From assembly GCA_040881685.1 (NCBI GenBank), contig JBBECS010000001.1:1-48511 (forward strand): a stretch of 48,511 nucleotides of DNA, given 5' to 3'. Below are positions 10,471 through 25,663 of this stretch, piece after piece (position 1 is the first letter of the stretch; the number at the start of each line of letters is the position of its first letter). Both the position numbers and the translations under genes were made by a program. The notes below the pieces were generated by a model. That model did no database searches and had not been told where the DNA came from. It worked only from the letters and a program-made list of their open reading frames with translations. This stretch comes from Acidimicrobiia bacterium. GTDB taxonomy: Bacteria; Actinomycetota; Acidimicrobiia; IMCC26256; PALSA-555.

Positions 10471-10486
10471 TCGAACGTATGTTCGG
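10471..10486. promoter_or_regulatory. LexA (SOS) box of imuA'-imuB
   Basis: TCGAACGTATGTTCGG matches the actinobacterial SOS box TCGAAC-N4-GTTCGA at 11 of 12 defined positions. It ends 11 bp before the imuA' ATG and abuts a TAGAAC -10-like hexamer, so bound LexA would block the promoter. Confidence 0.88.
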
Positions 10487-10497
10487 TAGAACGGGGT

Positions 10498-11163
10498 ATG
10501 GCCCTGGCCTCCTTCCCCCGACGTGACGGCGAGGCCCGCGCACGCCTGGAGTCGGTAGGGCGCCGAGCCACGCCGGTCACGCTCGCACGCGACCGGTCCA
10601 TCCCCGTGCCCGGCGATCTCGGTGCGCTGCTCCCCGGCGGTGCACTGCGGCGCGGGACCACTCTCATCGTCGCCGGGGCGATCGGCGGTGGCGCTACTTC
10701 GCTCGCGCTCGAGCTCGCGGCGACCGCCACGGCCACCGGCGAGTGGGCCGCGGCCGTCGATCTCGACGGCACCCTCGGTGCGGAGGCCGCCGCGGCGGTG
10801 GGCGTCGCGCTCGACTGCTTCGCCGTGATCCGACGGTGCCCGCCCGCCCGCTGGGCCACGGTGGTCGCCGCGCTGCTCGAAGGAGTGAGCCTCGTGCTTG
10901 CGGAGGTGCCCCGAGGTGTCGCAGCCGGTGACGCCCGCCGTCTCGTGGCGCGCGCCCGTGAGCGCGGCAGCGTGCTCGTCGCCCTCGAGATCGATGCGCG
11001 CTGGCCGGCCGATGCCGCGTTGCGGCTCCACGCTGCGGGTGGCGTCTGGCACGGGCTTGTACCTGGCGCGGGCTTACTTGCCGGTCGCGCGCGGTCGGTG
11101 CGAGTGGAAGGCCGGGGAGAAGCTGCACTCGCCCGCACGGGCGTGCTCGCCCGCGTCAGCTGA
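10498..11163 (+). CDS. imuA': ImuA'-like mutasome accessory protein (RecA-like)
   Basis: The 221-residue protein has the compact RecA-like fold of ImuA'/ImuA: a P-loop-like segment at residues 60-70, then acidic strands (AVDLDGTLG, SLVLAEVP) and a positively charged C-terminus. The P-loop reads GAIGGGATS, with Ala66 where the Walker A lysine should be, so ATP binding is probably lost. ImuA' acts with ImuB and DnaE2 in SOS-induced error-prone translesion synthesis. The LexA box 11 bp upstream and imuB one base downstream make the assignment firm despite low expected sequence conservation. Confidence 0.85.
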   Translation: MALASFPRRDGEARARLESVGRRATPVTLARDRSIPVPGDLGALLPGGALRRGTTLIVAGAIGGGATSLALELAATATATGEWAAAVDLDGTLGAEAAAAVGVALDCFAVIRRCPPARWATVVAALLEGVSLVLAEVPRGVAAGDARRLVARARERGSVLVALEIDARWPADAALRLHAAGGVWHGLVPGAGLLAGRARSVRVEGRGEAALARTGVLARVS

Positions 11164-11164
11164 G

Positions 11165-12829
11165 GTGAGCGGAAGAGCTGAGCGCACGTTCGCGCTCTGG
11201 TGCCCGGCCTGGGCAGTGGCGACCGCGTGCCGCACCGATCCCGCACTCACCGGTGCGCCCGTCGCGGTGGTCGAGCGGGGAAAGCGCGGTCTGGTGGTCC
11301 GCGCCGCGTCGGTGGAGGCGCGGGCCGATGGCGTGACCGTGGGCTTGCGGCGGCGGGAGGCGGAAGCCCGTTGCGCCGGGCTGGTGGTGGTCGACGTCGA
11401 TCTCGCGGCCGAGGCGCGCACGTTCGAGGCAGTGGCGCGGGCGATGGATCCGATCACGCCCGGGGTCGTGCTCGAGCGCCCGGGCGTGCTCACGTTCCCG
11501 ACTCGGGGCCCGTCGCGCTACTTCGGCGGTGACGAAGCGCTGGGCACGCGGGTGCTGGAGGCGGTCGCTGCCACTGGCATCACGAGCGCGCGCGCGGGGG
11601 TTGCCGACGGGAGGTTCGCGGCCCGTCTCGCGGCCCGCATCGCCGGCCCTGCGAGAGCGCGTGTCGTGGCCCCCGACGGGTCGGCGATGTTCCTCGCACC
11701 CTGGCCGGTGAACGTGCTCCAAGGAGTGGTGGACGGCGGTGAAGAGCTCGTGTCGCTGCTGGCGCGGCTCGGCATCCCCACGTTGCGCGACTTCGCCGCG
11801 CTTCCCGCGTCGGCGGTGCTGGCCCGCTTCGGTGCGAAGGGCGCACGGGCCCGTTGTCTCGCCCTCGGGCTCGACGAGCACGCGGCGCCACCCGCGCCGC
11901 CACCTCCCGACCTGGTGGAGACGTGTGAGCTCGATCCGCCTGCGACGAGAGTGGACGAGGCCGCGTTCGCCGCGAAGGGTCTCGCCGATCGCCTGCTTGG
12001 GCGGCTCGAGGCGCTCGGGCTCGCGTGCACGCAGGTCGTGGTGGAGGCCGAGACCGAGCACGGCGAGTCACTCTCACGTTGCTGGCGTCACGAGGGTGCG
12101 CTCACCCCCGCCGCGCTCGTGGCGCGCGTCCGCTGGCAGCTCGACGGATGGCTGACCTCAAAAGGAGGTCTGTCGGGTGGGCTCGCGTTGGTGCGGCTTG
12201 CACCGGACCGGGTCGTGCCCGCGACCGGTCGCCAGCTCGGCTTCTGGGGCGGTGACGCCGCGTCACAGGATCGGGCCGACCGCGCCCTGGCGCGGCTCCA
12301 GGGGATGCTCGGTCACGGCGGGGTGGTCACCGCGGTGCTCGCCGGTGGCCGCGCGCCTTCCGAGCGCGTCCGATGGGTGCCATGGGGCGAACCGCGTGAT
12401 GACGCGGCGACCGCGGGTGCGGAAGCACCGGCCTGGCCGGGCGCGATCCCCGGTCCCGCTCCCGCGCGAGTGCACGCACCACCGTTCCCAGCCGAGCTGC
12501 TCGATGCCGACGGTTCCCCCGTAGCGGTGTCGGGTCGCGGTGAGGCCACGGCTGCGCCGGCGCGTCTCCGGTGCGACGCGCTGCCCGAAGGTGGGGGTGC
12601 GATCACCGCGTGGGCCGGTCCGTGGGCTCACGACCTGCGCTGGTGGGACCTAGATGATGGTCGCACTCGCTACGAGCCGGGATACCCGGCTCGCGGGCGC
12701 TCGTCGCTCCACGTGACCCGACGCCGGCGCGCGCTGTGGCAGGTAGTGGTGGGTGAGGACGATGACCAGGTCGCGTGCCTCGTGGTGGTCGAGGCCGGGC
12801 GCGCGGGTGTCGAGGCGATCTACGACTGA
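11165..12829 (+). CDS. imuB: ImuB, catalytically inactive Y-family polymerase-like mutasome scaffold
   Basis: The 554-residue protein has the Y-family fold but lacks the metal-binding acidic residues: the first motif reads ALWCPAWAVA and the later one GPSRYFGGDE rather than DxDxF and SxDE. The beta-clamp-type motif QLGFWGG is at residues 357-363, followed by the family-typical GGRAPSERVRWVPWGE. ImuB bridges the clamp, ImuA' and DnaE2. GTG 11165 follows the imuA' stop by one base. The C-terminal segment at residues 500-515 is encoded by a palindromic repeat (12662-12709), inserted between RWWDLDDG and the conserved strand ALWQVVV. Confidence 0.93.
   Translation: MSGRAERTFALWCPAWAVATACRTDPALTGAPVAVVERGKRGLVVRAASVEARADGVTVGLRRREAEARCAGLVVVDVDLAAEARTFEAVARAMDPITPGVVLERPGVLTFPTRGPSRYFGGDEALGTRVLEAVAATGITSARAGVADGRFAARLAARIAGPARARVVAPDGSAMFLAPWPVNVLQGVVDGGEELVSLLARLGIPTLRDFAALPASAVLARFGAKGARARCLALGLDEHAAPPAPPPPDLVETCELDPPATRVDEAAFAAKGLADRLLGRLEALGLACTQVVVEAETEHGESLSRCWRHEGALTPAALVARVRWQLDGWLTSKGGLSGGLALVRLAPDRVVPATGRQLGFWGGDAASQDRADRALARLQGMLGHGGVVTAVLAGGRAPSERVRWVPWGEPRDDAATAGAEAPAWPGAIPGPAPARVHAPPFPAELLDADGSPVAVSGRGEATAAPARLRCDALPEGGGAITAWAGPWAHDLRWWDLDDGRTRYEPGYPARGRSSLHVTRRRRALWQVVVGEDDDQVACLVVVEAGRAGVEAIYD
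12662..12709 (-). repeat. Short palindromic element (copy 1) inside imuB
   Basis: A perfect 9-bp stem (12673-12681 with 12685-12693) flanks an ATA loop. Read on the minus strand it matches the dnaE2 copies at the loop, inner stem and the flanking CGCnCTCGCT block. It encodes 16 in-frame residues (RTRYEPGYPARGRSSL). Confidence 0.7.
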
Positions 12830-12851
12830 TGACCGGAGGTAACGTCCGACC

Positions 12852-13166
12852 ATGAGCGCACAGTCCACGATCCAGCTCGAGCGGGCATCCAAGTTCATGG
12901 ACCGCATCCGCAAGTACCAGGTGTTCGTCGACGCCGAAGAAGTCGGCACCATCAAGAACGGCGAGTCAGTGAGCTTCCCGATCGCGCCGGGTCGTCACGA
13001 GGTCGTGCTCCTGATCGACTGGGCCTCGTGCCCGCCCGTCACGATCGATGCGAAGCCGGGCGGCACCGTGCGCATGGCCTGTCGCCCAAAGGCCAATCCG
13101 CTCAACGCGCTCTACTACGTCCTCTTCGCGCGCGAGAAGTATCTGGAGCTCGACGTCATCGGCTGA
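12852..13166 (+). CDS. Small PEGA-like domain protein of unknown function
   Basis: The 104-residue protein has a beta-rich centre, YQVFVDAEEVGTIKNGES followed by FPIAPGRHEVVL, which is the PEGA-type pattern (short beta-sandwich with a GxxxI-PxGxHxV core). The end is LYYVLFAREKYLELDVIG. There is no signal peptide or strong transmembrane helix. A GGAGG ribosome site lies 12 bases before ATG 12852, and the gap to imuB is 22 bp, so it may be cotranscribed with the mutasome genes. No function can be given. Confidence 0.6.
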   Translation: MSAQSTIQLERASKFMDRIRKYQVFVDAEEVGTIKNGESVSFPIAPGRHEVVLLIDWASCPPVTIDAKPGGTVRMACRPKANPLNALYYVLFAREKYLELDVIG

Positions 13167-13187
13167 CGTCGATCGCCACTGCGGTGG

Positions 13188-13194
13188 GAGACTC
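13188..13194 (+). promoter_or_regulatory. GAGACTC start-proximal motif (phosphoesterase gene)
   Basis: GAGACTC is followed by five bases and ATG 13200. The identical arrangement occurs before ATG 15336 and ATG 22022, so it may be a variant -10 element. Confidence 0.35.
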
Positions 13195-13199
13195 CGCGC

Positions 13200-15296
13200 A
13201 TGCCGGAGGGAGAGGTCGTCGAACGCGGGAGCGGCGTCCCGCTCGCGAGCATTGTCGTGAGCGACGGCTTGGCAGTTACTCGCACGGGTGACGATGGCTC
13301 GTTCTCATTTCCCGATCGGGCCGATGCGGAGTTCGTGTTCGCGACGGTGCCGTCGTCGCACCTGGCGCTGCAGCCCGGCTGGTTCGCCAACGTGCGAGAC
13401 GGCGACACCGACACGATCCAGATCGAGCTCGATCCCCGGCCAGAGGGAGCGTCCGACGGCTGCACGTTCGTGCAGGTCACCGACCTTCACGTCTCGGTCG
13501 ATGAGGGGGCGCGCCTGCGCCCGATGATCGAGGCGGGGGTTGTTTCGCCGCCTGGCATCGCCGTGACGGGAGAGGTGAGCGCGGCGGAGCTCCGAGAAGA
13601 CCTCGAGTTGATCGTCGAGCGCGTCCAGCCCGACTTCATCGCAGCGACCGGCGACCTCGCCGACTACGGCCAACCCGAAGAGCTCGATGCGTACCGCGAG
13701 GCGATCACCGGGCTCGGCGCCCCGGTGGCGAGCGTGCCCGGCAACCACGATCACCTCTCGGTGCTGAGCCGGGAGTCCATCGAAGGGTTCTTCTCGACGT
13801 GGAAGCAAGAGGACACGCCCGACCTCGGTCCCGGCGAAGCCTTCCAGAAGGCCGTGTTCGGCGGTGACTGGCGTCGGGCAGCGTCGGGTCGCGTGCCGTG
13901 GGTAGAAGTGATGGGTCCGCTGTACTACTCGTTCGACTGGGGTGACGTGCACTTCGTCGCGTACGACGGCGAAGGACTACGTCGGTACGGAGACGACTAC
14001 CCGCAGGACGAATGGCTGGCGAACGAATTCGCGCTGGTCGAGCCAGGCACTCCCGTGGTGGTGCTCACGCACTTTCCGGAGACCGCCGACTTCTACCGGT
14101 CACGCTTCGGAACAGTGCGGCTCGTCGCTTCATTGAGTGGGCACTGGCACGGCACGCGCCTGTGGCGTGACGGCGAAGCGCAGCACTGGACCAGCTCGAC
14201 GCTCGGCTTTGGCGGCATCGACTACACGCCGCGTGGTTACCGGGTCATCGAGGTCGATGCGAACGGCGCAAGATCGTGGTGGGAGACGGTCGAGGCCCCG
14301 CGACCGCGCACCGCGCGCGTGTGCGGCGCGGCCGTGTCCGGTGAACGGATGGTGGTCGCGCTGGAGGAACCTGACGCGTCAGGCGCGATCAGCGCGGTCG
14401 GCTCGTGGTCGGAACCGTTGGCGGCGGCGGCGCGCGGTGGTGTCGTGGCAGCGAACGGAACGCTCTACGCCCTGGACTCAGGGTCGACGGTGCGGGCGTT
14501 CGACGCCGCCAACGGTGACGTGCGCTGGTCGCGCGAGCTCGGGGATCGGTCGGTTCGCTGGATGCTCGGAGCACTGGCAGCGAGCGGGGACCGTGTGTAC
14601 GTCGGGAGCGCGATCAGCGTGCACGCGCTCGACGCCCGCACCGGCGACGAGATCTGGCGTCGTGACATCTCGCCGGACGACTGGGCCGCGAGTTGGAGCG
14701 GCGTGACCGCCGATGACGAGATCGTCGTCGTCGGCGCGGTGAACGATCACCTCCATCTCGCGGCATTGGAAGCCGGCACCGGCGAGGTTCGCTGGCTCCA
14801 CGAAGGGCGCGACATCGCCGGCGTCAGCGCGACCCCGAGGATCCTCGAGGATCAAGTCTTCGCGGCGCGCGCCCCCGGTTGGCTCCAGGCGTTCGAACGG
14901 GGCGACGGCAAGATGCGGTGGGAGGCCCCGCTTGACGACGCCTGGCCAGTCGCGCTCGCGGCCGCCCGCGGCCGCGCATTCGTCCGCAGCTCCAGCGGCA
15001 CGATCACTGCCCATGATGTGACCGATGGGAGCACTCAGTGGACGTGTGCGCTCGGTCCGGGTCTTCGCGCTGCGCGTCCGTACTCCAGAACAACCGGTGG
15101 TGCGCGTCTCCCGCTGGTCGTCTTCGGTCCGTACGTCTGGACGGGCGCCACCCATGAGCTCGTCGGCATCGACCTCGAATCCGGCGAGATCGTGAGTCGA
15201 ACCGACGCAGGTGGTGAGGTGGCGACTGTCCTCGGCGATGGCCCGAGTGTCTGCGCGGTCACCGTCGACGGACGAGTGGTGCGCGCCGCCCGCTGA
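13200..15296 (+). CDS. Calcineurin-like metallophosphoesterase fused to a PQQ-type beta-propeller
   Basis: The 698-residue protein has three parts. Residues 1-80 resemble a carboxypeptidase-regulatory-like beta-sandwich (GSGVPLASIVVSDG, DDGSFSFP). Residues about 88-360 are a binuclear-metal phosphoesterase with VTDLHVS (D95, H97), GDLADYG, GNHDH, THFP and GHWHGT. Residues about 390-698 contain six or seven PQQ-like propeller repeats (LYALDSGSTVRAFD, VHALDARTGDEIW, ITAHDVTDGSTQW). Related phosphoesterases hydrolyse phosphate mono- or diesters, including cyclic nucleotides in some families. No signal peptide is visible at ATG 13200. The two cyclases immediately downstream make a cyclic-nucleotide link conceivable but unproven. 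Confidence 0.82.
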   Translation: MPEGEVVERGSGVPLASIVVSDGLAVTRTGDDGSFSFPDRADAEFVFATVPSSHLALQPGWFANVRDGDTDTIQIELDPRPEGASDGCTFVQVTDLHVSVDEGARLRPMIEAGVVSPPGIAVTGEVSAAELREDLELIVERVQPDFIAATGDLADYGQPEELDAYREAITGLGAPVASVPGNHDHLSVLSRESIEGFFSTWKQEDTPDLGPGEAFQKAVFGGDWRRAASGRVPWVEVMGPLYYSFDWGDVHFVAYDGEGLRRYGDDYPQDEWLANEFALVEPGTPVVVLTHFPETADFYRSRFGTVRLVASLSGHWHGTRLWRDGEAQHWTSSTLGFGGIDYTPRGYRVIEVDANGARSWWETVEAPRPRTARVCGAAVSGERMVVALEEPDASGAISAVGSWSEPLAAAARGGVVAANGTLYALDSGSTVRAFDAANGDVRWSRELGDRSVRWMLGALAASGDRVYVGSAISVHALDARTGDEIWRRDISPDDWAASWSGVTADDEIVVVGAVNDHLHLAALEAGTGEVRWLHEGRDIAGVSATPRILEDQVFAARAPGWLQAFERGDGKMRWEAPLDDAWPVALAAARGRAFVRSSSGTITAHDVTDGSTQWTCALGPGLRAARPYSRTTGGARLPLVVFGPYVWTGATHELVGIDLESGEIVSRTDAGGEVATVLGDGPSVCAVTVDGRVVRAAR

Positions 15297-15323
15297 TCGA
15301 CTCGCGCCTTCCACCATCGGTGC

Positions 15324-15330
15324 GAGACTC
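15324..15330 (+). promoter_or_regulatory. GAGACTC start-proximal motif (first cyclase gene)
   Basis: GAGACTC precedes ATG 15336 by five bases, in the same geometry as at 13188 and 22010. Confidence 0.35.
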
Positions 15331-15335
15331 CTCCG

Positions 15336-18125
15336 ATGCCTGGGGCCGGGGGGCTGCCCACGGGAACGGTCACGTTCCTGTTCACCGATCTTGAGGGTTC
15401 AACGCGTCTCTGGGAGGAGCACCCCGAGGCGATGAAGGACGCGCTCGCGCGTCACGACGAGCTGCTGCGGAGCGCCGTCGAATCGCACGGTGGCCACGTC
15501 GTGAAGACCACGGGTGATGGCCTCCATGCCGTATTCGCTACTGCCGAGCAGGCGGTCGCGGCGGCGGTGGCGGGACAAGGAGCGCTCTCCGGAGTCGACG
15601 GTCCCGAAGGACCGTTGCGCGTCCGCATGGGTCTGCACACGGGCGCAGCTGACGTCCGAGACGGTGACTACTACGGCGGTGCGGTGAACCGCGCCGCGCG
15701 AGTGTCAGCGGCCGGGCACGGTGGACAGGTGCTCGTCTCACACGCGACCGAGGAGCTGATTCGTGACGACCTCGGTGACGGCCTGGCGCTCGTCGATCTC
15801 GGGGAGCACCGACTGCGCGACCTTGCGCGCCCGGAGCGCTTGTTCCAGCTCGCCGCGCCCGGGATGCCACGTGAGTTCCCGCCCGTCCGCTCGGTTGACG
15901 CCTTTCCCGGCAACCTGCCGTCGCAACTCACCTCGTTCGTCGGGCGCGACGACGAGCTGTCCCGAGTTGGCAAGGCGCTCGACGAATCTCGACTTGTCAC
16001 GCTGATCGGTGTTGGCGGCGTCGGCAAGACGCGCCTTGCCACGCAGGTGGCAGCTGAGGTGCTCCCGCGCTTCGCCGACGGTGCATGGTTGTGCGAGCTC
16101 GCGGCTGCCAGCGACGCCGAAGCGATGGTGCAGGTCGTGGCGGCGACGCTTGGCGTCCAACAGCACCCGAACGTCTCGCTCGAAGAGAGCATCCTGGAGT
16201 ACCTGCGGACCAAGCAACTGCTCTTGGTGCTCGACAACTGCGAGCACCTGCTCGCGGACGCGGGTGGCCTCGCCGAGGGGGTGTTGCACCGATCCGATGG
16301 CGTGCGCATCCTCGCGACGAGTCGAGAGGGCCTCGCTGTCGAGGGTGAGCAGGTGTGGCCCCTGCGGTCGTTGCGGACGCCGACATCGACCTCCACCGTC
16401 GAGGTCGTGGCGAGCGCGGCGGCGCGGCTCTTCATCGAGCGCGCGCAGGCTGCCGCGCCCGGGTTCGATGTGGATGATGCCAATGCCGCCGCAGTCGCCG
16501 AGATCTGCAAGCGCCTCGACGGCATCCCGCTCGCGATCGAACTCGCGGCGGCACGCGTCTCCGCAATGAGTCCGACCGAGATCGCTGCGCTGCTGGACGA
16601 GCGCTTCCGCCTGCTCACCGGAGGTCGTCGGACGGCGGTCGAACGGCACCAGACACTGCGCGCCACGGTCGACTGGTCCTACTCGTTGCTCGAGCCCAAC
16701 GAGCGCTTCGTGTTCGACCGACTCGGTGTGTTCTCAGGCAGCTTCGACAACGCGGCCGCCTCAGCCGTCGTGACCGGCGACGGGATCGAGCACTGGGATG
16801 TCGTCGACGCGATGGCGGGTCTCGTCAACAAGTCGATGGTCAACGCCGAGAAGACCTCCGAGGACACCACGCGCTACACAATGCTCGAGACGCTCCGGCA
16901 GTACGCACGGGAGCAGCTCGACGAGCACGATGCGTCAGACGACTGGCGGCGTCGCCACGCGCAGCACTATGCGGCCCTTGCCGAGCAAGCAGGGCGTGAG
17001 CTCGTCGGCCGAAGGGAGCTGGCCGCTCGTCGTCGCGTCCAGACCGAGCTCGACAACCTGCGCGCCGCCGTGACGTGGGCGCTCGACAGCACGCTCGACG
17101 AAGACGTGGAGCTTGGCGTGGGCATCGTTGCCGAGCTGTCGTACGAGGCGACGTGCAACGTGGCCAGTGGTATTGGGGCCTGGGCGGAACGTGCCGTCGA
17201 AGCGGCTCGCCGGTCGACATCGGAGCGGCGGCGCGCCGTGCTGGGCGCGGCCGCGTATTACCTGCACCAGGGTCTCGGCGACTTTCCGCGCGCTCGCCAA
17301 CTAGCGCTTGAGGCGGTCGAGGAGGGATTCGTCGCCGATGCGCCGGGCGGTTCGATCGCGGAGACGACGCTCGGGATGAGCTACATGGCCGCCGGCGAGC
17401 GCGAGCTCATGCTGGAGGTGATCGCCAACATCCATCGCCGTCTCGATGAGGGTGGCGAGGACCTGTTCGTCCGCTCAGCGTTGCACTCGTCGACTGCGGC
17501 GATGCTCACGACGATCGGTGACTGGAACATGGCGCGGGTTGAAGCATCAGCCGGTCTTGCCACCGCGCGTCAGATCCAGAACCCGACCTGCCTCGCGCTG
17601 GCCCTCTTCGCAGTGGGCTGGACCAACTCCGGTGACGACCCGGGTGCCGCGCTTGCCGCGTACGAAGAGAGCATCGCGCTCACTCGTGCGGGAGCCGTCG
17701 ACGGCGCATTCGGCGCGGCGTTGAGCCAGGCCGCGCAGCTCCGCGCACATGCCGGTGACGCAAGAGGATCATTGGAGGGGCTGCGCGAGGCCATTACCTA
17801 CTCCCACGAAGTCGGCGATCACATGAACTTCATCAACGCGGTCAATCGCGGCATCCAGATCGTCGGTCTCCTCGGGAACCCGGTCGCCGCGGCGACGCTC
17901 TCCGGCGTCATGAAGGGCGACTTGCTCGAAGCGTTCCCCGTGTACGAGCTGAGGGACTTCGAGGGCCGTGGCCAACAGGCCGTCCAGGATCAGGTCCGCA
18001 GCGAGCTGGGTGATGACGTCTACAGCGCCGCAATGGCGCGCGGTACCGCGATGTCGTACGACGAGATCGTGGCGTACGTCCTCGCGGAGATCGATCGCAT
18101 GCTCGCCGAGTTGGACGATGCCTGA
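15336..18125 (+). CDS. Class III adenylate cyclase-STAND ATPase-TPR signalling protein (copy 1)
   Basis: The 929-residue protein opens with a class III cyclase domain. Metal-binding D18 (FTDLEGST) and D61, the substrate-selecting pair K57 and D111, and transition-state N118 and R122 (AVNRAAR) are all present, which predicts an active, ATP-specific enzyme. A STAND/NB-ARC ATPase follows, with Walker A GVGGVGKT at 225-232, Walker B LLLVLDNCEH and the ILATSRE motif, then a long TPR-like helical region. There is no LuxR-type HTH at the C-terminus, unlike the related mycobacterial cyclase-ATPase-LuxR proteins. It ends in a conserved MSYDEIVAYVLAEIDRML helix shared with the next gene. Confidence 0.88.
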   Translation: MPGAGGLPTGTVTFLFTDLEGSTRLWEEHPEAMKDALARHDELLRSAVESHGGHVVKTTGDGLHAVFATAEQAVAAAVAGQGALSGVDGPEGPLRVRMGLHTGAADVRDGDYYGGAVNRAARVSAAGHGGQVLVSHATEELIRDDLGDGLALVDLGEHRLRDLARPERLFQLAAPGMPREFPPVRSVDAFPGNLPSQLTSFVGRDDELSRVGKALDESRLVTLIGVGGVGKTRLATQVAAEVLPRFADGAWLCELAAASDAEAMVQVVAATLGVQQHPNVSLEESILEYLRTKQLLLVLDNCEHLLADAGGLAEGVLHRSDGVRILATSREGLAVEGEQVWPLRSLRTPTSTSTVEVVASAAARLFIERAQAAAPGFDVDDANAAAVAEICKRLDGIPLAIELAAARVSAMSPTEIAALLDERFRLLTGGRRTAVERHQTLRATVDWSYSLLEPNERFVFDRLGVFSGSFDNAAASAVVTGDGIEHWDVVDAMAGLVNKSMVNAEKTSEDTTRYTMLETLRQYAREQLDEHDASDDWRRRHAQHYAALAEQAGRELVGRRELAARRRVQTELDNLRAAVTWALDSTLDEDVELGVGIVAELSYEATCNVASGIGAWAERAVEAARRSTSERRRAVLGAAAYYLHQGLGDFPRARQLALEAVEEGFVADAPGGSIAETTLGMSYMAAGERELMLEVIANIHRRLDEGGEDLFVRSALHSSTAAMLTTIGDWNMARVEASAGLATARQIQNPTCLALALFAVGWTNSGDDPGAALAAYEESIALTRAGAVDGAFGAALSQAAQLRAHAGDARGSLEGLREAITYSHEVGDHMNFINAVNRGIQIVGLLGNPVAAATLSGVMKGDLLEAFPVYELRDFEGRGQQAVQDQVRSELGDDVYSAAMARGTAMSYDEIVAYVLAEIDRMLAELDDA

Positions 18126-20874
18126 CCTCCCGACCGGCACGGTCACGTTCCTCTTCACCGATCTCGAGGGCTCGACACGCCTGTGGGAAGAGCGCGCCGA
18201 GGCAATGAAGGACGCGCTCGCGCGCCACGACGAGTTGCTGCGCGCGGCGGTTGAGGCTTGCGAGGGTCATGTCGTCAAGACGACCGGTGACGGCGTCCAC
18301 GCCGCGTTCGCCGATCCAGTGCACGCGATCGATGCTGCGATCGCCGGACAGCGTGCGCTCGACGAGGCGGTGATCGACCCGCCGCTGCGAGTGCGCATGG
18401 GCATTCATACCGGTCCGGCGGAGCCCCGCGATGGGGACTACTACGGCAGCGCTGTGAATCGAGCGGCGCGTCTCATGTCAGCCGCACACGGCGGCCAGAT
18501 CGTGGTCTCGCTCGCCACCGAGGAGCTCGTTCGCGACGACCTTTCGGCGGGGATCGAGCTCATCGACCTCGGCGAGCACCTGCTCCGCGACCTCTCCCGC
18601 TCGGAACGCATCTTCCAGGTCGTCGCTCCTGGGCTCCACGAAGACTTCGCGCCGCTTCGCTCCATCGACACCGCGCCCGGGAACCTCCCCGCACAGCTGA
18701 CGTCGTTCATCGGCCGCGGCGAGGAGCTGCACGAGATTGCCGTGGAACTCGAGAAGAACCGGCTCGTGACGATCACTGGAGCTGGTGGCGTCGGGAAGAC
18801 GCGCCTCGCCATGCACGTCGCCGCGGAGGTCCTGCCCCGTTACCGCGACGGGGCATGGCTGTGCGAGCTCGCGCCAGTGGTCGATGCCGACGAGATGCAC
18901 CAAGTGCTGGTTGCAACCCTCGACATTCAACCGCGAGCCGGTGTGTCCCTCCTGGACAGCATCTGCGACGCGCTACGGACGAAGCACGTACTCGTCATCC
19001 TCGACAACTGCGAGCATCTACTCCGCGCCGCGCGAGATCTCATTGGGCGGATCCTGGCGTCCTGTCCTGACGTGCGCGTCCTGGCTACGAGCCGGGAAGG
19101 GATCGGAATCGCGGGCGAGCAGGTGTGGCCCTTGCGGTCACTCGACATACCGGAGAGTGCTGCCGCACACGAGGTGGCCGAGGCGGAGGCGGCGGTCCTC
19201 TTCATGGATCGGGCTCGATCAGTGCGCCCCGGGTTCGTGATCGACGCCGGCAACGCGGCAGCAGTGGCGGACATCTGCCGTCGATTGGATGGCATCCCGC
19301 TGGCGTTGGAGCTGGCGGCTGCGCGCATGGTTGCCATGTCGCCGGCAGATGTGGCGACCCGACTCGACGAACGCTTCCGATTGCTGACCGGTGGGCGAAG
19401 CGGTGCGGTCGAACGCCATCAGACGCTTCGCGGCGCCCTCGAGTGGTCGTACTCGCTGCTCGATGCTCGAGAACAATGCGTCTTCGATCGATTGTCCGGC
19501 TTCTCAGGCACGTTCGATGCCGCCGCAGCCGAGGCGGTGGTTACCGGTGGGGGAGTCGAAGGCTGGGATGTGCTCGACGCCCTCGGTGGCCTCGTGGCGA
19601 AGTCGATGCTCATCGCTGAGCCCTCGGATGACGGCACGATGCGGTATCAGCTGCTCGAGACCATGCGGCAATACGCGGCGGAGCAGCTCGAGGAGCACGA
19701 CGATCCTGATGCGTGGCGCCGCCGGCACGCCGAGCACTACAGCGCGGTCACAGAGGAGGTCGCACGCGGCATTCGGGGTCCTGACGAAGGCCGCTACCGG
19801 CAACAGCTTCTCGCCGAGATCGACAACGTCCGTTCGGCGGTGCAGTGGAGCAACGACGCTGCCGACCGCACAGACGCCGAGCTCGGACTGAGGATCATCG
19901 CGGCGCTGTCCTACGAGGCGTCTTTCAACCGCCCTCTGGGTGTTGGCGTTTGGGCAGAGCGCGCGGCGGAGCGCGCCGAGCGGTCCACCGAGGGCAGACG
20001 GTCTGACGTCTTGAGTGCCGCCGCGAGTAGCGCCCTTGCGCGCGGTGACGTTGATCTGTGCGCCGTGTTCGCAAACGCAGCGCTGGAGCACGGCCCGCAA
20101 GCGGACAGCTGGTCCCCGAGCCTCCCGTATCTGGCGCTTGCGTATCGCGCCCTGACCGTGGGAGCTCACGACGAGATGCGCTCGGTGATCGCGGACTGGC
20201 GTCGGACGTTGGAGTCGATCGACGCCGACGACTTCCAGCGGGCGAGCGGGTACTGGACGTGGGCTGCATTCGGCTCGCTGTTCGGTGACCCGCAAGCTCT
20301 GGAAGACGCCCGCGCCGCGACGACGGTCGCGCGCAAGTCCGGCAATCCCACTGCGATCGGAAACAGCCTTCACGCGCTCGGCATGGCGCTCGCCCGAAGT
20401 GACCCGGATGAAGCGCTTGCGGTACTCGAGGAGGCCGCGACCGTCAAGATGGTGTCCGGCAAGTCGAACTTGCTGGGCAATGCGTATGCGCTGATCGCAC
20501 AGCTGCGAGCGCGTCGAGGTGAACGATCGGCAGCGCTCGAAGCCCTGCGCTTCTCGATCGCGCACTTGGACGAAGCCGGTGACAAGCCACAGTTCCTCGG
20601 CACGATCGACTGGGCCGTGGTGATCTTCCGCCTCTTCGAGGAAGACGAGGCCATGGCGGTGACGGCGGGCGTGGCGATCGACGGTCCGCTCGCGGTCCTG
20701 AACAACTTCCCCGGAGTGCCGAGGCACGGAGACCCGGCGTTGAGCAAGGTCGAGGCGCGCCTCGGTGCCGAGCGGTATCGGGAGCTAGTGGCACAGGGTG
20801 CGGCCATGTCCTATGACGAAGTCGTGCAGTACCTGTTCGCTGAGATCGACCGGATGCTCGCTGAGACGAGTTAG
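18118..20874 (+). CDS. Class III adenylate cyclase-STAND ATPase-TPR signalling protein (copy 2)
   Basis: The 918-residue paralogue of the preceding gene starts at ATG 18118, overlapping its stop by eight bases. All cyclase residues are intact: D15, K54, D58, D107, N114 and R118. The Walker A is GAGGVGKT and Walker B VLVILDNCEH. The cyclase and ATPase parts align almost residue for residue with copy 1, whereas the TPR region has diverged strongly, suggesting the copies sense different partners. Overlapping translation makes equal co-expression likely, and class III cyclases work as dimers, so a heterodimer is possible. An HTH is again missing. Confidence 0.88.
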   Translation: MPDLPTGTVTFLFTDLEGSTRLWEERAEAMKDALARHDELLRAAVEACEGHVVKTTGDGVHAAFADPVHAIDAAIAGQRALDEAVIDPPLRVRMGIHTGPAEPRDGDYYGSAVNRAARLMSAAHGGQIVVSLATEELVRDDLSAGIELIDLGEHLLRDLSRSERIFQVVAPGLHEDFAPLRSIDTAPGNLPAQLTSFIGRGEELHEIAVELEKNRLVTITGAGGVGKTRLAMHVAAEVLPRYRDGAWLCELAPVVDADEMHQVLVATLDIQPRAGVSLLDSICDALRTKHVLVILDNCEHLLRAARDLIGRILASCPDVRVLATSREGIGIAGEQVWPLRSLDIPESAAAHEVAEAEAAVLFMDRARSVRPGFVIDAGNAAAVADICRRLDGIPLALELAAARMVAMSPADVATRLDERFRLLTGGRSGAVERHQTLRGALEWSYSLLDAREQCVFDRLSGFSGTFDAAAAEAVVTGGGVEGWDVLDALGGLVAKSMLIAEPSDDGTMRYQLLETMRQYAAEQLEEHDDPDAWRRRHAEHYSAVTEEVARGIRGPDEGRYRQQLLAEIDNVRSAVQWSNDAADRTDAELGLRIIAALSYEASFNRPLGVGVWAERAAERAERSTEGRRSDVLSAAASSALARGDVDLCAVFANAALEHGPQADSWSPSLPYLALAYRALTVGAHDEMRSVIADWRRTLESIDADDFQRASGYWTWAAFGSLFGDPQALEDARAATTVARKSGNPTAIGNSLHALGMALARSDPDEALAVLEEAATVKMVSGKSNLLGNAYALIAQLRARRGERSAALEALRFSIAHLDEAGDKPQFLGTIDWAVVIFRLFEEDEAMAVTAGVAIDGPLAVLNNFPGVPRHGDPALSKVEARLGAERYRELVAQGAAMSYDEVVQYLFAEIDRMLAETS

Positions 20875-21054
20875 GTGAGCCCGAAAGCGCCACGATCACC
20901 TTGGCCGCGACCGCGGCGGGCGGGCGATCGACGCCGATGATGATCGCGTCGTTCGGGATCTCGAGCGCTTCGATCTGCGAAGGGAGCAGCGACGCCGGCG
21001 CGATGACCGGTGGCTCACAGCGCCATCATGGCGCGCGGTGCACGACGCGCGACT

Positions 21055-21100
21055 TCGAACGCTCAACTGTCGGAAATGTATCGCTCAGTTGAGAGTTCGA
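21055..21100. repeat. 15-bp inverted repeat, one mismatch, 16-base loop
   Basis: TCGAACGCTCAACTG at 21055-21069 pairs with 21086-21100 except at one position. The arms begin with TCGAAC and end with GTTCGA like LexA half-sites, but they are far too widely spaced for one LexA dimer. Confidence 0.6.
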
Positions 21101-21115
21101 TACCAGCTCGCAAAG

Positions 21116-21137
21116 AATCTCAAAACTTTCTGAGATT
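21116..21137. repeat. 7-bp AT-rich inverted repeat
   Basis: AATCTCA (21116-21122) pairs with TGAGATT (21131-21137) around an eight-base AT-rich loop, 51 bp before the HNH gene. It could be an operator or an end remnant of a mobile segment. Confidence 0.4.
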
Positions 21138-21187
21138 TCTGCGTGACATCCGGCTTGACTGTCACACCACCCTGTCATCCTGAACGC

Positions 21188-21970
21188 ATGACGTTCGGGG
21201 AGATCGCCGCCGCGCTGCGAGAACGACTCGCGACGCTCGAGCCCGAGTGCTACTCGGGTGCTGACGCGGCGCGTCACGCCGAGGTCACCGCGGAGATCCG
21301 CAACCTCGGCGACACCGCCACGATCTTGCTCGCCAAGCGTGCCGCCGACACTCGTGCGTGGACTCGCGTCTCCCACGCTGCGTCGGCCGAGCAGTGGCTC
21401 GCCAACGTCTCGGGGACGTCCGAGCACACGGCTCGCGAGCAGCTCCTCACCGCGTACCGATTCGATGCCCTCATGATGCTCGCCGCGGGCGGTGCGCCCG
21501 CTGAACGGGCGAAGCGCCCCGAGCCGGTAGTACGGCTCAACGTCGGGCTGCAGTCACTCCTCGAGGGGCGCACGGTGGCGGGTGAGGTGTGCGAGATCCC
21601 CGGTGTCGGCCCGGTTCCGGTCGCGCACGCCCGCGAAGTGTTGCAACACGGCTTGCTCGAGCTCGTGATCTCCGACGGAGTCGACGTGCACAGCGTCGTC
21701 TCGACGACCCGCCACATCCCCAAGGCACTCAAGATCGCCGTGGATGCCCGCGACGGCGGCCGCTGCAAAGTCAGCGACTGCGACCACACCAGGGCAATCG
21801 AGCGCCACCACACGCTCGGCTTCGCGGAGCATCGGCTCACTACCTACGAGGTGCTCGGAGGCGTCTGTCCCGACCACCACGACCTCATCACGCACCGCGG
21901 CTACACGGTCATCGAGAACGACGACGGCACCTGGTCGCTCCGAGCGCCACCCCATACCAGCGCGGCGTGA
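21188..21970 (+). CDS. Compact 13E12-family HNH endonuclease-like protein
   Basis: The 260-residue protein has the 13E12/DUF222 C-terminal pattern: GEVCEIPGVGPVPVAHAREVL, LLELVISDGVDVHSV and a zinc-finger-like HNH domain (CKVSDCDHTRAIERHHTLGFAEH then GVCPDHHDLITHRGY), with the Cys and His ligands intact. The N-terminal 90 residues resemble the family's helical start. The long middle region of full-length members (usually about 400 residues or more in total) is missing, as if deleted in frame after about residue 95. Such proteins are abundant in actinobacteria and often linked to repeats. ATG 21188 was chosen; GTG 21143 is possible. Confidence 0.75.
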   Translation: MTFGEIAAALRERLATLEPECYSGADAARHAEVTAEIRNLGDTATILLAKRAADTRAWTRVSHAASAEQWLANVSGTSEHTAREQLLTAYRFDALMMLAAGGAPAERAKRPEPVVRLNVGLQSLLEGRTVAGEVCEIPGVGPVPVAHAREVLQHGLLELVISDGVDVHSVVSTTRHIPKALKIAVDARDGGRCKVSDCDHTRAIERHHTLGFAEHRLTTYEVLGGVCPDHHDLITHRGYTVIENDDGTWSLRAPPHTSAA

Positions 21971-22009
21971 CACGCCGCTCCGGGTCCGCGATTCGTCTCA
22001 GTGAGCGGT

Positions 22010-22016
22010 GAGACTC
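22010..22016 (+). promoter_or_regulatory. GAGACTC start-proximal motif (64-residue ORF)
   Basis: GAGACTC is five bases before ATG 22022, the third instance of this geometry, and supports this start. Confidence 0.35.
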
Positions 22017-22021
22017 GTGTC

Positions 22022-22216
22022 ATGTACGAGTACCTCATCCGCAACTGGACGAAAGGTCGGCATGAAGGTCGGTATCCGACGCTTGATGCTGCCTTGGCCG
22101 CGGTTCCCATGCGGTGTGCTGACCGCGACGAGTTCACAGTCTGGGAAGGGCATCGCTTCAACCGCGGTGATACCGCGAATGCAGTTTTCGATGGGCGGTA
22201 TCGGTCGGCGCGCTGA
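22022..22216 (+). CDS. Small 64-residue protein of unknown function
   Basis: The protein starts MYEYLIRNWTKGRHEGRYPTL and has alternating aromatic and charged residues (FTVWEGHRFNRGDTANAVFDGRY), consistent with a small beta-rich fold. I recognise no family. Start ATG 22022 is supported by the GAGACTC motif; GTG 22001 would add seven residues. It lies between the HNH gene and the dnaE2 SOS box, in the same direction. It has no signal peptide or Cys. Confidence 0.5.
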   Translation: MYEYLIRNWTKGRHEGRYPTLDAALAAVPMRCADRDEFTVWEGHRFNRGDTANAVFDGRYRSAR

Positions 22217-22243
22217 CCGGGATGCCGGGCCCTTCTTGCCCTA

Positions 22244-22259
22244 GCGAACATACGTTCGA
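22244..22259. promoter_or_regulatory. LexA (SOS) box of dnaE2
   Basis: GCGAACATACGTTCGA matches TCGAAC-N4-GTTCGA at 11 of 12 defined positions. A TAGGGT -10 begins at 22260, immediately after it, and dnaE2 starts 53 bp downstream of the box. Confidence 0.9.
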
Positions 22260-22312
22260 TAGGGTGCCCAGCCCGGCCCTTCGGGGTTCTGGGTCCTGGC
22301 GGAGTAGGGCCC

Positions 22313-25300
22313 GTGGAGCACGGCGCTGGCGAGCGGCCCGCAGGGCGGCGGTCGGGTATCCCGATCGCCGAGCGAGCGCGCCCAGAAGGTGGCTATGCCG
22401 AGCTGCACTGCCACACCAACTTCTCGTTCCTCGATGGTGCCAGTCACCCTGAGGAGCTGGTCGACGAGGCCGCGCGCCTCGGCTTGGCCGCGCTCGCGGT
22501 CACCGACCACGACGGGTTCTACGGGATCGTGCGCTTCGCGCTGGCCGCCGCATCAGTGGGGATGCCGACGGTGTTCGGCGCCGAGCTCACCCTCGACCAG
22601 ACGGCTGGGCCGCCGAACGGAGTCGCGGATCCGCCGGGGAACCATCTGGTGGTCCTCGCGGAAGGACCGCTTGGTCACGCCCGTCTCGCACGGGCGATCA
22701 GCGAAGGACAGATGGCGGGGGAGAAGGGCGCGCCGCGCTTCGTGATCGAAGCGCTCGCTGCCGCGTCACGCGCCGGTGTGCACCTCACTCACAACCGCAC
22801 CAGTGCGACGAACGACGCATGGCACGTGCTCACCGGTTGCCGCAAGGGACCGCTGGCGCGCGCGCTCCACGCCGAGGGTCCGGCGGCAGCTCGGCGCGCG
22901 CTCGACCACTTGACCGACGCATTCGAGCGCGACCGCGTGCTCGTTGAGCTGTGGGACCACGGCGATCCCCTCGACCGGCACCGCAACGACGCGCTCGCCG
23001 AAGTCGCGATCAGGGCAGGTGTCGATGTGATCGCCACCAACAACGTGCATTACGCCACACCGCAGCAACGCCAACTCGCTGCCGCGCTCGCGGCCATCAG
23101 ATCGAGACGTTCGCTCGACGAGATCGACGGCTGGCTGCCGGCATCGTCGTTTGCACACCTGCGCAGCGCGGCCGAGCAGCACCGGCGATTCGCGCGGTGG
23201 CCCGGCGCGGTCGAACGGACCGTCGACATCGCGCGCCAGTGCGCCTTCGACCTGCGCCTCGCCGCACCGAACCTCCCCAACCTCGACGTGCCACCCGGTC
23301 ACACCGACATGTCGTGGCTGCGCGAGCTCACCCGGCGCGGCGCCGCACGCCGCTACTCACCCAGTCACCCCGACCATGAGAAGGCGCAACGTCAGATCGC
23401 CCACGAGCTCGACGTGATCGAGCAGCTCGGGTTCCCCGGCTACTTCCTGCTGATCTTCGAGATCGTCGAGTTCTGCAAGGAGCAGGACATCTACTGCCAG
23501 GGCCGGGGGAGCGCCGCGAACAGCGCGGTTTGCTACGCCCTCGGCGTCACCAAAGCCGACGCGGTCGCGCTCGGACTGCTCTTCGAGCGGTTCCTGTCGC
23601 CCGAGCGCGACGGGCCACCCGACATCGACCTCGACATCGAGCACCAGCGAAGAGAGGAGGTCATCCAGTACGTCTACGACAAGTACGGGCGCGACCGCGC
23701 CGCGCAGGTCGCCAACGTCATCACCTACCGACCGCGCTCCGCATTGCGCGAGATGGCCAAGGTCGCGGGCCTCTCACCCGGACACGCCGATGCGCTCGCC
23801 AAGCAGGTGGACAGATGGGGGCGCGGTGACGATCCGTTGGCGGTGGTGGGGGAGAGCGGAGCCGAGCGGCCCGAAGGGCGGGGCCGGGTATCCCGGCCCC
23901 GAGCGAGCGCGACCATGGTGTTGGACCTGGCGACCCAGGTGCTCGACTTCCCGCGCCACCTCGGCATCCACTCGGGCGGCATGGTGATGGCCGACCGCCC
24001 GCTCGTGGAGTTCTGCCCGGTCGAGTGGGCTCGCATGGAGGACCGCTCGGTGCTCCAGTGGGACAAGGACGACTGCGCGTCCGCAGGCCTCGTGAAGTTC
24101 GACCTGCTCGGGCTCGGGATGCTCACGATGCTGCACATGGCCGTCGACCTGGTGCGTGAGCACGAGGGGATCGAGATCGACCTGGCCACGATCCCCCAAG
24201 AAGACGAGGTGTACGACCTGCTGTGCGCGGCCGACACGATCGGCGTGTTCCAGGTGGAGAGCCGCGCACAGATGGGCACGCTGCCGCGCCTTCGGCCGCG
24301 CACCTTCTACGACCTCGTGGTTGAGGTCGCGCTGATCCGCCCCGGGCCGATCCAGGGCGGCTCGGTACACCCGTATCTGCGCCGGCGCACCGGTGAGGAG
24401 CCCGTCACCTACCCGCACCCGATCCTCGAGCCGTGCCTACGCAAGACGCTCGGTGTGCCGTTGTTCCAGGAGCAGCTCATGCAGATCGCCATCGACGCGG
24501 CCGGCTTCACGCCGGGGGAAGCCGACCAGCTGCGCCAGGCGATGGGGTCGAAGCGCTCGAAGCAGCGCATGGCTGCGATGCACGACCGGCTGATGCAGGG
24601 GATGGCCGAGCGCGGGATCGACACCGACGCGGCCACCGACATCGCTCACAAGCTCGAAGCCTTCGCGCAGTTCGGCTTCCCCGAGAGCCACTCCGTGAGC
24701 TTCGCCTACCTCGTGTACTCGAGCTCATGGGTGAAGCTGCACTACCCGGCCGAGTTCGTGTGCGCGCTGCTCAACGCGCAGCCGATGGGCTTCTACTCGC
24801 CGCACACGCTCGTGCGTGACGCCGTTCGCCACGGGGTGCAGGCGCTCGGACCCGACGTGAACATCTCCCGCACGGACTGCACGCTCGAAGCACGCACGCC
24901 CGATGCGGGCCCGGTCGGTCGTCCGCGCAATGGGTGGCACGCCGACCCGTCCGAGCACGCGCTGCGCATCGGGTTGCGCTACGTGCGCGGACTCGCCGAC
25001 GCGCTCCTCGAGCGCATCGAGACGGCGCGTGAGGCCAGCGGAGCATTCATCAGCCTGGAGGACTTCACGCGCCGGACCAATGCCCCCGGTGACGCGCTCG
25101 AGGCGCTGGCCACCGCCGGCGCGTTCGGTTCCCTCGGCGTGGAGCGGAGAGAGGCGTTGTGGGCAGCGGGCGCGCTGCACGACGCCCGCCCCGGCACGCT
25201 CCCCGGCGTGATCACCGGGGTCGAGGCGCCTCCCCTGCCCGGCATGGAGCCGATCGACGAGACGAACGCCGATCTCTGGTCCACCGGCATGTCCACGAGC

Positions 25301-25663
25301 CGACACCCCACGGAGTTCGTGCGCGCTGCGCTCAGCGCCCGGGGCGCCGTCACCGCGGAGGCGCTCAGAGGGCTCTCCCACCGCACGGTCGTGGAGGTGG
25401 GTGGGATCGTCACCCACCGCCAGCAGCCGGAGACGTCCAAGGGCGTGGTGTTCATCAACCTCGAGGACGAGACCGGCCTCGTCAACGTGGTCTGCACGCC
25501 CGATGTGTGGAAGCGGTTCCGCAAGGTGGCCCGCACCTCACCCGCGCTGATCGTGCGCGGGATGCTCGAGCGTCAACAGGGCGTGATCAACCTGCTCGCC
25601 CACCGCATCGAAGCACTCGCTCTCCGCCCGGCCGCCCTCCTCAGATCGCGCGACTTCCACTAA
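22313..25663 (+). CDS. dnaE2: Error-prone DNA polymerase III alpha subunit DnaE2 (ImuC)
   Basis: The 1116-residue protein has the DnaE2 layout: PHP domain from residue 28 ([30 protein letters not shown]), palm/thumb with [15 protein letters not shown] and the catalytic [46 protein letters not shown], and a C-terminal OB fold ([29 protein letters not shown]). It is the polymerase of the SOS mutasome. GTG 22313 has GGAG nine bases upstream. Residues 7-22 and 518-533 are encoded by two copies of one palindromic repeat; the second lies in a variable loop between the LAKQVDRWG and [15 protein letters not shown] regions. It is about 9.5 kb from imuB. Confidence 0.95.
22331..22380 (+). repeat. Short palindromic element (copy 2) at the dnaE2 N-terminus
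   Basis: The stem 22347-22356 pairs with 22360-22369 around TAT (ten pairs, one G-U). It begins GAGCGGCCCG and ends CGAGCGAGCGCG like copy 3. It encodes residues 7-22 of DnaE2 ([16 protein letters not shown]), before the conserved PHP domain. Confidence 0.75.
23864..23911 (+). repeat. Short palindromic element (copy 3) inside dnaE2
   Basis: A perfect 9-bp stem (23880-23888 with 23892-23900) flanks TAT. Outer blocks GAGCGGCCCG and CGAGCGAGCGCG match copy 2, while the stem differs by paired changes. It encodes residues 518-533 ([16 protein letters not shown]), an insertion relative to the mycobacterial protein as I recall it. Confidence 0.78.

What the first reader, a model, noticed from the sequence alone, without database searches (positions are those of the whole stretch)
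15336..20874. Tandem adenylate cyclase-STAND-TPR paralogues with intact catalysis and no HTH
Two overlapping genes encode proteins with all six cyclase residues present, an intact Walker A and long TPR tails that have diverged much more than the catalytic parts. Well-known mycobacterial relatives end in a LuxR HTH and often have degenerate cyclases. Here the architecture suggests a STAND switch that controls cAMP output directly, with each copy sensing a different signal, perhaps as a heterodimer. STAND proteins also act in defence, so an alarm role is conceivable.
Basis: partly seen in the sequence, partly recalled or inferred. Interest (0 to 1): 0.55.

Follow-up and report, generated by a model that had tools for sequence, protein, structure and literature searches.

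The report
Paired sensor-gated adenylate cyclases, actinobacterial
Two neighbouring bacterial genes each join a probable cAMP-making enzyme to an NLR-like ATP switch and a fast-changing sensor tail; in relatives the enzyme half appears to be swapped between copies, so one output may be served by many different sensors.

Summary
A (15336-18125, 929 aa) and B (18118-20874, 918 aa) overlap by 8 bp. Each is a class III cyclase with all six canonical residues, an NB-ARC/STAND switch of AfsR type with intact Walker A, and a TPR-like solenoid; no HTH was found. A-B identity is 74% in the cyclase, 59-64% in STAND and 35% in TPR. Both AlphaFold models are confident. The chains end just before the point where some relatives, one in the same genome, continue into a LuxR HTH.

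Most likely A and B are signal-gated adenylate cyclases whose output is cAMP, not DNA binding. Among fetched relatives, all 7 with an HTH lack the adenine-binding Lys, while 43 of 68 without keep it; but HTH arose only twice, so this is weak. Gating, product, heterodimers and sensing are inferred. Defence is not supported.

The unexpected part lies in relatives: cyclase and STAND halves have conflicting trees, with switch points at the interdomain linker in 4 of 6 comparisons (3 of 5 genes). One relative holds nine tandem copies, six with similar cyclases (80-92%) on unlike STAND-TPR halves. This points to recurrent exchange of the enzyme half. For A/B itself the evidence is only suggestive.

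The parts
15336..18125 (+). gene A, 929 aa cyclase-STAND-TPR protein (P0001)
18118..20874 (+). gene B, 918 aa cyclase-STAND-TPR protein (P0002); start ATG at 18118
18118..18125 (+). 8-bp start/stop overlap of A and B (possible translational coupling, inferred)
15357..15851 (+). A class III cyclase domain (aa 8-172), hexad D18 K57 D61 D111 N118 R122
15861..15935 (+). A interdomain linker (aa 176-200), low pLDDT at 187-190; region where the halves switch partners in relatives
15936..16955 (+). A STAND NB-ARC core: NBD (201-345, Walker A at 16008-16034) and helical/winged-helix part (346-540)
16956..17933 (+). A TPR-type helical solenoid (aa 541-866)
17964..18122 (+). A C-terminal helices (aa 877-929, MSYDE motif); the protein ends just before the LuxR HTH of HTH-bearing relatives
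18130..18621 (+). B class III cyclase domain (aa 5-168), same hexad
18631..18705 (+). B interdomain linker (aa 172-196), low pLDDT at 183-186
18706..19725 (+). B STAND NB-ARC core (aa 197-536, Walker A at 18778-18804)
19726..20682 (+). B TPR-type helical solenoid (aa 537-855)
20734..20871 (+). B C-terminal three helices (aa 873-918); no HTH family matched

Best explanation
A and B are signal-gated adenylate cyclases without a DNA-binding output. By analogy with MalT/PH0952 and AfsR, the resting protein would be held shut by NOD-TPR contacts with ADP bound. A ligand (small molecule, peptide or protein) on the fast-evolving TPR tail would let the STAND core take up ATP and open, freeing or pairing the cyclase domains so that they form the two-fold class III active site and make cAMP. 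cNMP-binding-domain proteins elsewhere in the genome could read it. The family evolves by duplicating whole genes, letting the STAND-TPR half diverge, and repeatedly exchanging the cyclase half at the flexible linker. SHOWN: domain order, canonical residues, predicted folds, no HTH found, TPR divergence, conflict of cyclase and STAND trees in relatives. INFERRED: ATP gating, how the cyclase is switched on, cAMP as product, different ligands for A and B.
For: Domains and residues; models pLDDT 85.5 (B) and 86.6 (A); cyclase matches Ma1120 (A: Z 24.4, rmsd 1.5, 161 residues; B: TMt up to .93); B's STAND-TPR has PH0952 6mfv as top Foldseek row, and the family profile matches AfsR 8k60 (E 7e-28). 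Among fetched relatives, HTH-bearing 7 of 7 without Lys57; HTH-less 43 of 68 with it and 37 of 68 with the full hexad. Five cNMP-binding-domain matches in the genome. AfsR: NOD and TPR inhibit the N-terminal effector and ATP relieves it (PMC10936776, abstract and passages); PH0952/MalT autoinhibition (PMC6468293, abstract). Module exchange.
Against: No assay and no multimer model. 31 of 68 HTH-less relatives do not show the full hexad (one of them has an unreadable base), so lack of an HTH does not guarantee an active cyclase. HTH presence arose on only 2 lineages; the independent-pairs test has no power. ATP did not change the oligomeric state of AfsR (PMC10936776 passage), which speaks against opening acting through multimers in this STAND type. 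A's orthologs in two same-genus MAGs are broken frames, one also reading Trp for the catalytic Arg, and same-genus G001 has no close copy, so A looks dispensable in the genus.
Confidence: 0.6

Rival explanations
1. A and B work as an obligate heterodimer: the two cyclase halves pair across proteins, so cAMP is made only when both sensors are engaged (AND gate).
For: Adjacent, overlapping genes; cyclase 74% identical while TPR is 35%; B groups with A and A's orthologs in the cyclase tree (88/90) but with a different partner in the STAND tree, where {A,B,A'} is rejected p .0137.
Against: Each protein has a complete hexad and could homodimerise. The two tests on the window pair do not survive correction for nine AU tests, and the switch point within B is poorly placed (18 against 10 informative sites). 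No complex was modelled.
Confidence: 0.25
2. Anti-phage or damage alarm: the cyclases report infection or stress and cAMP triggers a protective or suicidal response.
For: STAND proteins and Pycsar cyclases act in defence (recalled); weak PycC and mad8 matches (E 7e-6 and 6e-6 at best); tandem arrays, fast-evolving sensors and several broken copies resemble NLR gene clusters; location between two units with LexA-type boxes.
Against: The PycC match covers only about 70 residues of the cyclase core; neither direct neighbour (13200, 21143) has a PADLOC hit, and the one PycC hit among ten other window proteins is another cyclase; no exact LexA-type box at A/B; the cyclase gene lies opposite to the cassette in L054.
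Confidence: 0.12
3. The cyclase domain is a nucleotide-sensing or oligomerisation module and the main output goes through a partner protein (for example a separate DNA-binding protein), in the way the mclx paper suggests for Mclx2 and Mclx3.
For: Many relatives have lost Lys57 or other hexad residues yet keep the architecture (31 of 73 rows not intact, HTH-bearing rows included).
Against: A and B keep all six residues; STAND relatives with a transcriptional output carry it in the same chain (BTAD in L067-L070, GerE in L081).
Confidence: 0.15

Closest known systems
Mycobacterial CHD-(NB-ARC)-LuxR proteins Rv0386, Rv1358, Rv2488c (mclx genes)
   Same: N-terminal class III cyclase, AAA/NB-ARC in the middle; multigene family with pseudogenes (PMC4452763, passages; PMC3466318, passages)
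   Different: They end in LuxR HTH and two lack canonical cyclase residues; in A and B no HTH was found and the hexad is canonical. HTH-bearing copies with Gln57 cyclases also occur here among relatives (L046, L092, L129, L183)
AfsR (SARP-NOD-TPR, Streptomyces; PDB 8k60, 8jke)
   Same: Only solved chain, among the 60 rows shown, matched by the family profile over the whole STAND-TPR half (profile positions 184-851); effector fused at the same place as in the BTAD relatives L067-L070, which begin to match at A 183-192
   Different: N-terminal effector is a DNA-binding SARP domain, not a cyclase
MalT / PH0952 STANDs with TPR sensor (PDB 6mfv)
   Same: Top Foldseek row for B over NOD plus TPR, 765 columns, TMq .44
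   Different: No cyclase; MalT ends in LuxR HTH (recalled)
Mammalian soluble adenylate cyclase ADCY10
   Same: Cyclase followed by NTPase and TPR-like region (recalled, not tested)
   Different: Two cyclase domains in one chain (recalled)
Ma1120 (Mycobacterium avium adenylate cyclase)
   Same: Closest solved cyclase fold, 36-40% identity
   Different: Only its cyclase domain was compared; the solved chains hold no STAND-TPR half

Membership tests
class III nucleotidyl cyclase | PF00211 match and six catalytic residues | tested here: met
   (residue roles recalled)
class III nucleotidyl cyclase | makes cAMP as dimer | not testable with these tools
   no assay, no multimer model
STAND NTPase (NB-ARC / AP-ATPase type) | P-loop NBD plus helical and winged-helix subdomains with Walker A/B | tested here: met
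   PF00931 over cut-off in both, B only just; Walker A intact, LDNCEH Walker B region; NB-ARC and Apaf-1 matches
STAND NTPase (NB-ARC / AP-ATPase type) | ADP-to-ATP switch and multimerisation | not testable with these tools
   inferred from AfsR and PH0952 papers, which differ on multimers
TPR sensor STAND (MalT/AfsR type) | C-terminal TPR solenoid | tested here: met
   models (53, 59), AfsR and 6mfv matches (36, 58); Pfam TPR calls weak (8)
Mclx (cyclase-LuxR) | C-terminal LuxR HTH | tested here: not met
   no HTH family matches A or B, and both end before the HTH seen in 2 of 29 aligned members
Pycsar cyclase (PycC) | match to PycC models over most of their length, with an effector gene beside it | tested here: not met
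   only 69-70 residues matched by the best PycC model, E 7e-6 in A and 4e-4 in B; neither direct neighbour has a PADLOC hit

The most novel reading that the evidence does not exclude
A shared-enzyme, private-sensor network: within a cell the cyclase halves of many paralogous STAND-TPR receptors are kept alike by recurrent gene conversion or exchange at the linker, so that different receptors can pair through their cyclases and cAMP output computes combinations of signals, as paired NLRs do. A and B would be a two-member case, the nine-gene array of G015 the extreme.
Probability: 0.2. Interest if true: 0.78.

Novelty: new variant of a known kind. Interest (0 to 1): 0.5.

Why it matters
If right, it is a bacterial parallel to NLR receptor evolution in which the effector, not the sensor, is kept alike between copies, and it offers a simple in-vitro system (one protein, one small-molecule product) to ask how a STAND switch turns on an enzyme. 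It also adds relatives from the window's order to the cyclase-LuxR proteins that a 2012 survey of Actinobacteria found only in Mycobacterium (PMC3466318, passages).

Tried and rejected
Functional link to SOS mutagenesis: A/B lie between ImuB and DnaE2 here, a cyclase-STAND gene does so in L056, L057 and L054, and one lies near DnaE2 in L064. But exact LexA-type boxes stand only before ImuA' and DnaE2 in the window, the L054 copy is inverted, and in the 20 other gaps fetched (20 of 61 genomes) none of the five longest frames listed per gap matched A. I take it as cargo in a variable spot; the contents of those gaps were not annotated.

Phosphodiesterase partner: the upstream metallophosphoesterase-PQQ gene (13200-15296) is 39 bp before A, but no homolog at E<=1e-8 turned up in the loci of A's relatives; a 50-residue match lies in the G001 gap. 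Its cAMP-phosphodiesterase match is weak (E 9e-4).

HTH versus catalysis as a statistical rule: Fisher p .004 (6 of 6 HTH rows versus 25 of 68 without Lys57), but only two independent HTH gains, so the phylogenetic test cannot speak. The set is what I fetched, partly with an HTH-bearing query, not a random sample.

Rate differences alone as the cause of cyclase similarity: rejected for G015 and for L025/L056P2/L057P2, because relationships, not only distances, conflict. Assembly chimeras: the longest exact repeat is 52 bp for arr7-arr8 and 39 bp for arr7-arr4 (the maximum over all array pairs is 101 bp, arr2-arr4) and at most 30 bp between L055B and the other family genes compared. Unlikely, not excluded: these are draft assemblies in many contigs. 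The L080_224/L084 clade was not rejected by cyclase data (p .143). The same-genome excess of cyclase identity comes mostly from G015; G058, G029 and G040 go the other way.

Papers: searches listed no study of HTH-less cyclase-STAND-TPR arrays (listings and abstract starts seen; PMC2447327, PMC4452763, PMC7159879, PMC10936776 and PMC3466318 by passages, PMC6468293 by abstract). Of PMC2447327 the tool held 20,587 characters, with no text hit for NB-ARC outside the references, so a description there cannot be excluded. PMC7159879 passages concern other cyclase-bearing conflict systems.

Full report
OBSERVATION. A (15336-18125) and B (18118-20874) are real, co-directional and overlap by 8 bp. Pfam gives Guanylate_cyc and NB-ARC over cut-off in both (B's NB-ARC just) and no HTH. 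The canonical hexad reads DKDDNR in both and Walker A is intact. Pairwise identity is 74% (cyclase), 59% (NBD), 64% (rest of NOD), 35% (TPR); the last residues rise again to 67-75%.

STRUCTURE. AlphaFold models reach mean pLDDT 86.6 (A) and 85.5 (B). Runs under 50 are only 183-186 in B and 1-4, 187-190 and 868-878 in A, so the cyclase-STAND linker is loose in both. B's top Foldseek hit is the TPR-sensor STAND PH0952 (6mfv, E 6e-12), followed by Ma1120 cyclase (TMt about .9); Apaf-1 is also among the rows. For A, VIA-align gives Ma1120 Z 24.4 (rmsd 1.5, 161 aligned), an APPBP2 helical-repeat protein Z 24.4 (3.7, 317), NRC1 NB-ARC Z 23.7 (3.3, 309) and Rap pheromone receptors Z about 22 over 539-902 (5.4, 333). 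By sequence profile AfsR matches over the whole STAND-TPR half (E 7e-28). The C-terminus is three helices in B. In the alignment of 29 full-length members two (L081:13799-16705 from the same genome, and L042) continue into a LuxR HTH shortly after the point where A and B stop; GerE is found in 2 of 29.

FAMILY. At E<=0.001, B matches something in 55 of 61 genomes, own included, though many of these are only cyclase or only STAND matches. In a class-wide draw A has a match at E<=1e-120 in 52 of 247 genomes, own included. Named relatives with the cyclase half are mostly Acidimicrobiia and other Actinomycetota, Armatimonadota-type and Dehalococcoidia MAGs; Geodermatophilus and Nitriliruptorales records match in the STAND half only. 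So the architecture as such is common. The own genome has further copies: C11 (two, one with HTH) and a C35 copy split between frames, besides more distant cyclase genes.

OUTPUT. Of 86 distinct fetched sequences, 7 have an HTH by a profile built from three of them, and Pfam GerE confirms all seven (L081, L042 = L134, L118 = L135 by place, L129, L183, L092, L046). All 7 lack Lys57 (A, G or Q). Of 68 HTH-less sequences whose stop is in the locus, 43 keep Lys57 and 37 the whole hexad; one is unreadable at that site; 11 open-ended ones without an HTH seen were left out. This fits a split between cAMP-output and DNA-output members, but HTH arose on only two branches and the independent-pairs test cannot decide. 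Two of the HTH copies lacking Lys57 still score well as cyclases in Pfam. Four HTH copies read Gln57 with Asn or Thr at 111, recalling the unusual substrate mode reported for Rv0386 (only the title seen; residues recalled).

EXCHANGE OF THE CYCLASE HALF. G015 contig C165 is a run of nine intact, same-strand copies (1520-25730, gaps -4 to +85 bp). Copies 1, 5, 6, 7, 8 and 9 share 80-92% of the cyclase while their NBDs are 46-79% and TPRs 12-39% alike; copy 7 has the STAND-TPR of copies 2 and 4 (NBD 78-89%, TPR 41-45%) but the cyclase of copy 8 (92%, against 59% to copy 4). The nucleotide switch lies near codon 175-200. NBD and the rest of NOD go together in these comparisons, which serves as an internal control. 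Trees of cyclase (35 rows) and NBD-ARC (34 rows), taken from seven genomes out of the 73-row set, conflict. AU tests: cyclase data reject the STAND clades {arr2,4,7} (p 9e-5), {L075P2, L056P2, L078} (.0019), {L079, L055P2} (.034) and {B, L025} (.044), not {L080_224, L084} (.143). STAND data reject the cyclase clades {arr7,8} (1e-66), the nine-row G015 clade (1e-50), {L025, L075P2, L056P2} (1e-65) and {A, B, A'} (.0137). Eight of nine are below .05; five survive a ninefold correction, and neither window-pair test does. Best switch points in A numbering: copy 7 187 and 189 (two parent pairs), L055B (= L025 gene) 189, L057P2 179, L055P2 149 and, for B, a poorly placed 176 (interval 110-306): four of six comparisons, three of five genes, well placed at the linker. 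The same junction (A 183-192) is where BTAD relatives L067-L070 begin to match. Same-genome pairs have excess cyclase identity for their NBD identity (mean residual .073; 0 of 2000 label shuffles reach it), but 78 of 178 such pairs are G015; without G015 the mean is .025 against -.012 between genomes (no test run), the own genome is at .021 (6 pairs), and G058 (-.056, 10 pairs), G029 (-.041, 1) and G040 (-.014, 6) go the other way. Sample: 73 rows, 2556 pairs.

MECHANISM. The AfsR paper (abstract and passages) shows that NOD and TPR inhibit the N-terminal effector and that ATP binding lifts this, without a change of oligomeric state. The PH0952/MalT paper (abstract) describes TPR-NOD autoinhibition and ADP-to-ATP opening with multimerisation. 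With a cyclase in place of the SARP domain, opening would free or pair the cyclase halves. This is inference. The genome has five cNMP-binding-domain matches as possible readers.

SURROUNDINGS. The genes interrupt an ImuA'-ImuB...DnaE2 cassette: ImuA' and DnaE2 are over NCBIfam cut-offs, ImuB is a Y-family polymerase by Pfam IMS, named ImuB from its place. In L056, L057 and L054 a cyclase-STAND gene is in the same gap; same-genus G001 has a 5-kb gap and no close copy in the genome. See Noticed in passing.

NOVELTY. Parts and order are known kinds. What appears new is the HTH-less, catalytically canonical tandem form and the exchange of its enzyme half. Six literature searches listed no description, in a library that lacks most subscription papers.

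Noticed in passing
window 10472-25663: ImuA' and DnaE2 each have an exact CGAAC-N4-GTTCG box upstream (10472 and 22245), but about 9.5 kb with a metallophosphoesterase-PQQ gene, A, B and a 275-aa ORF (21143; HNH-like by my reading, no family over cut-off) separates ImuB from DnaE2; in other genomes where both lie on one contig this gap ranges from under 100 bp to several kb. The LexA reading of the box is recalled.
   Followed up: partly
L073 1520-20000 and L074 (G015:C165 1520-25730): Nine tandem cyclase-STAND-TPR genes fill nearly a whole 26.6-kb contig; copies 2, 3 and 4 have Ser for the adenine-binding Lys.
   Followed up: yes
L056 6488-9273, L057 2737-5650, L077, L082, L085: Several copies are broken by stops or frameshifts, including A's ortholog in two same-genus MAGs and a copy in the window's own genome (C35): birth-and-death turnover or sequencing error.
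   Followed up: partly
window 13200-15296: MetallophosN-metallophosphoesterase-PQQ propeller protein 39 bp upstream of A; the propeller has a weak AfsK match, curious beside an AfsR-type STAND.
   Followed up: partly
L092 8341-11784, L129 190-3615, L183 1333-4776, L046 1-3348: Cyclase-STAND-LuxR proteins with Gln57 cyclases (Rv0386-like, recalled) in relatives from the window's order, outside Mycobacterium.
   Followed up: partly
window 34018-35070: A further class III cyclase gene with a weak PycC match (E 4e-7).
   Followed up: no
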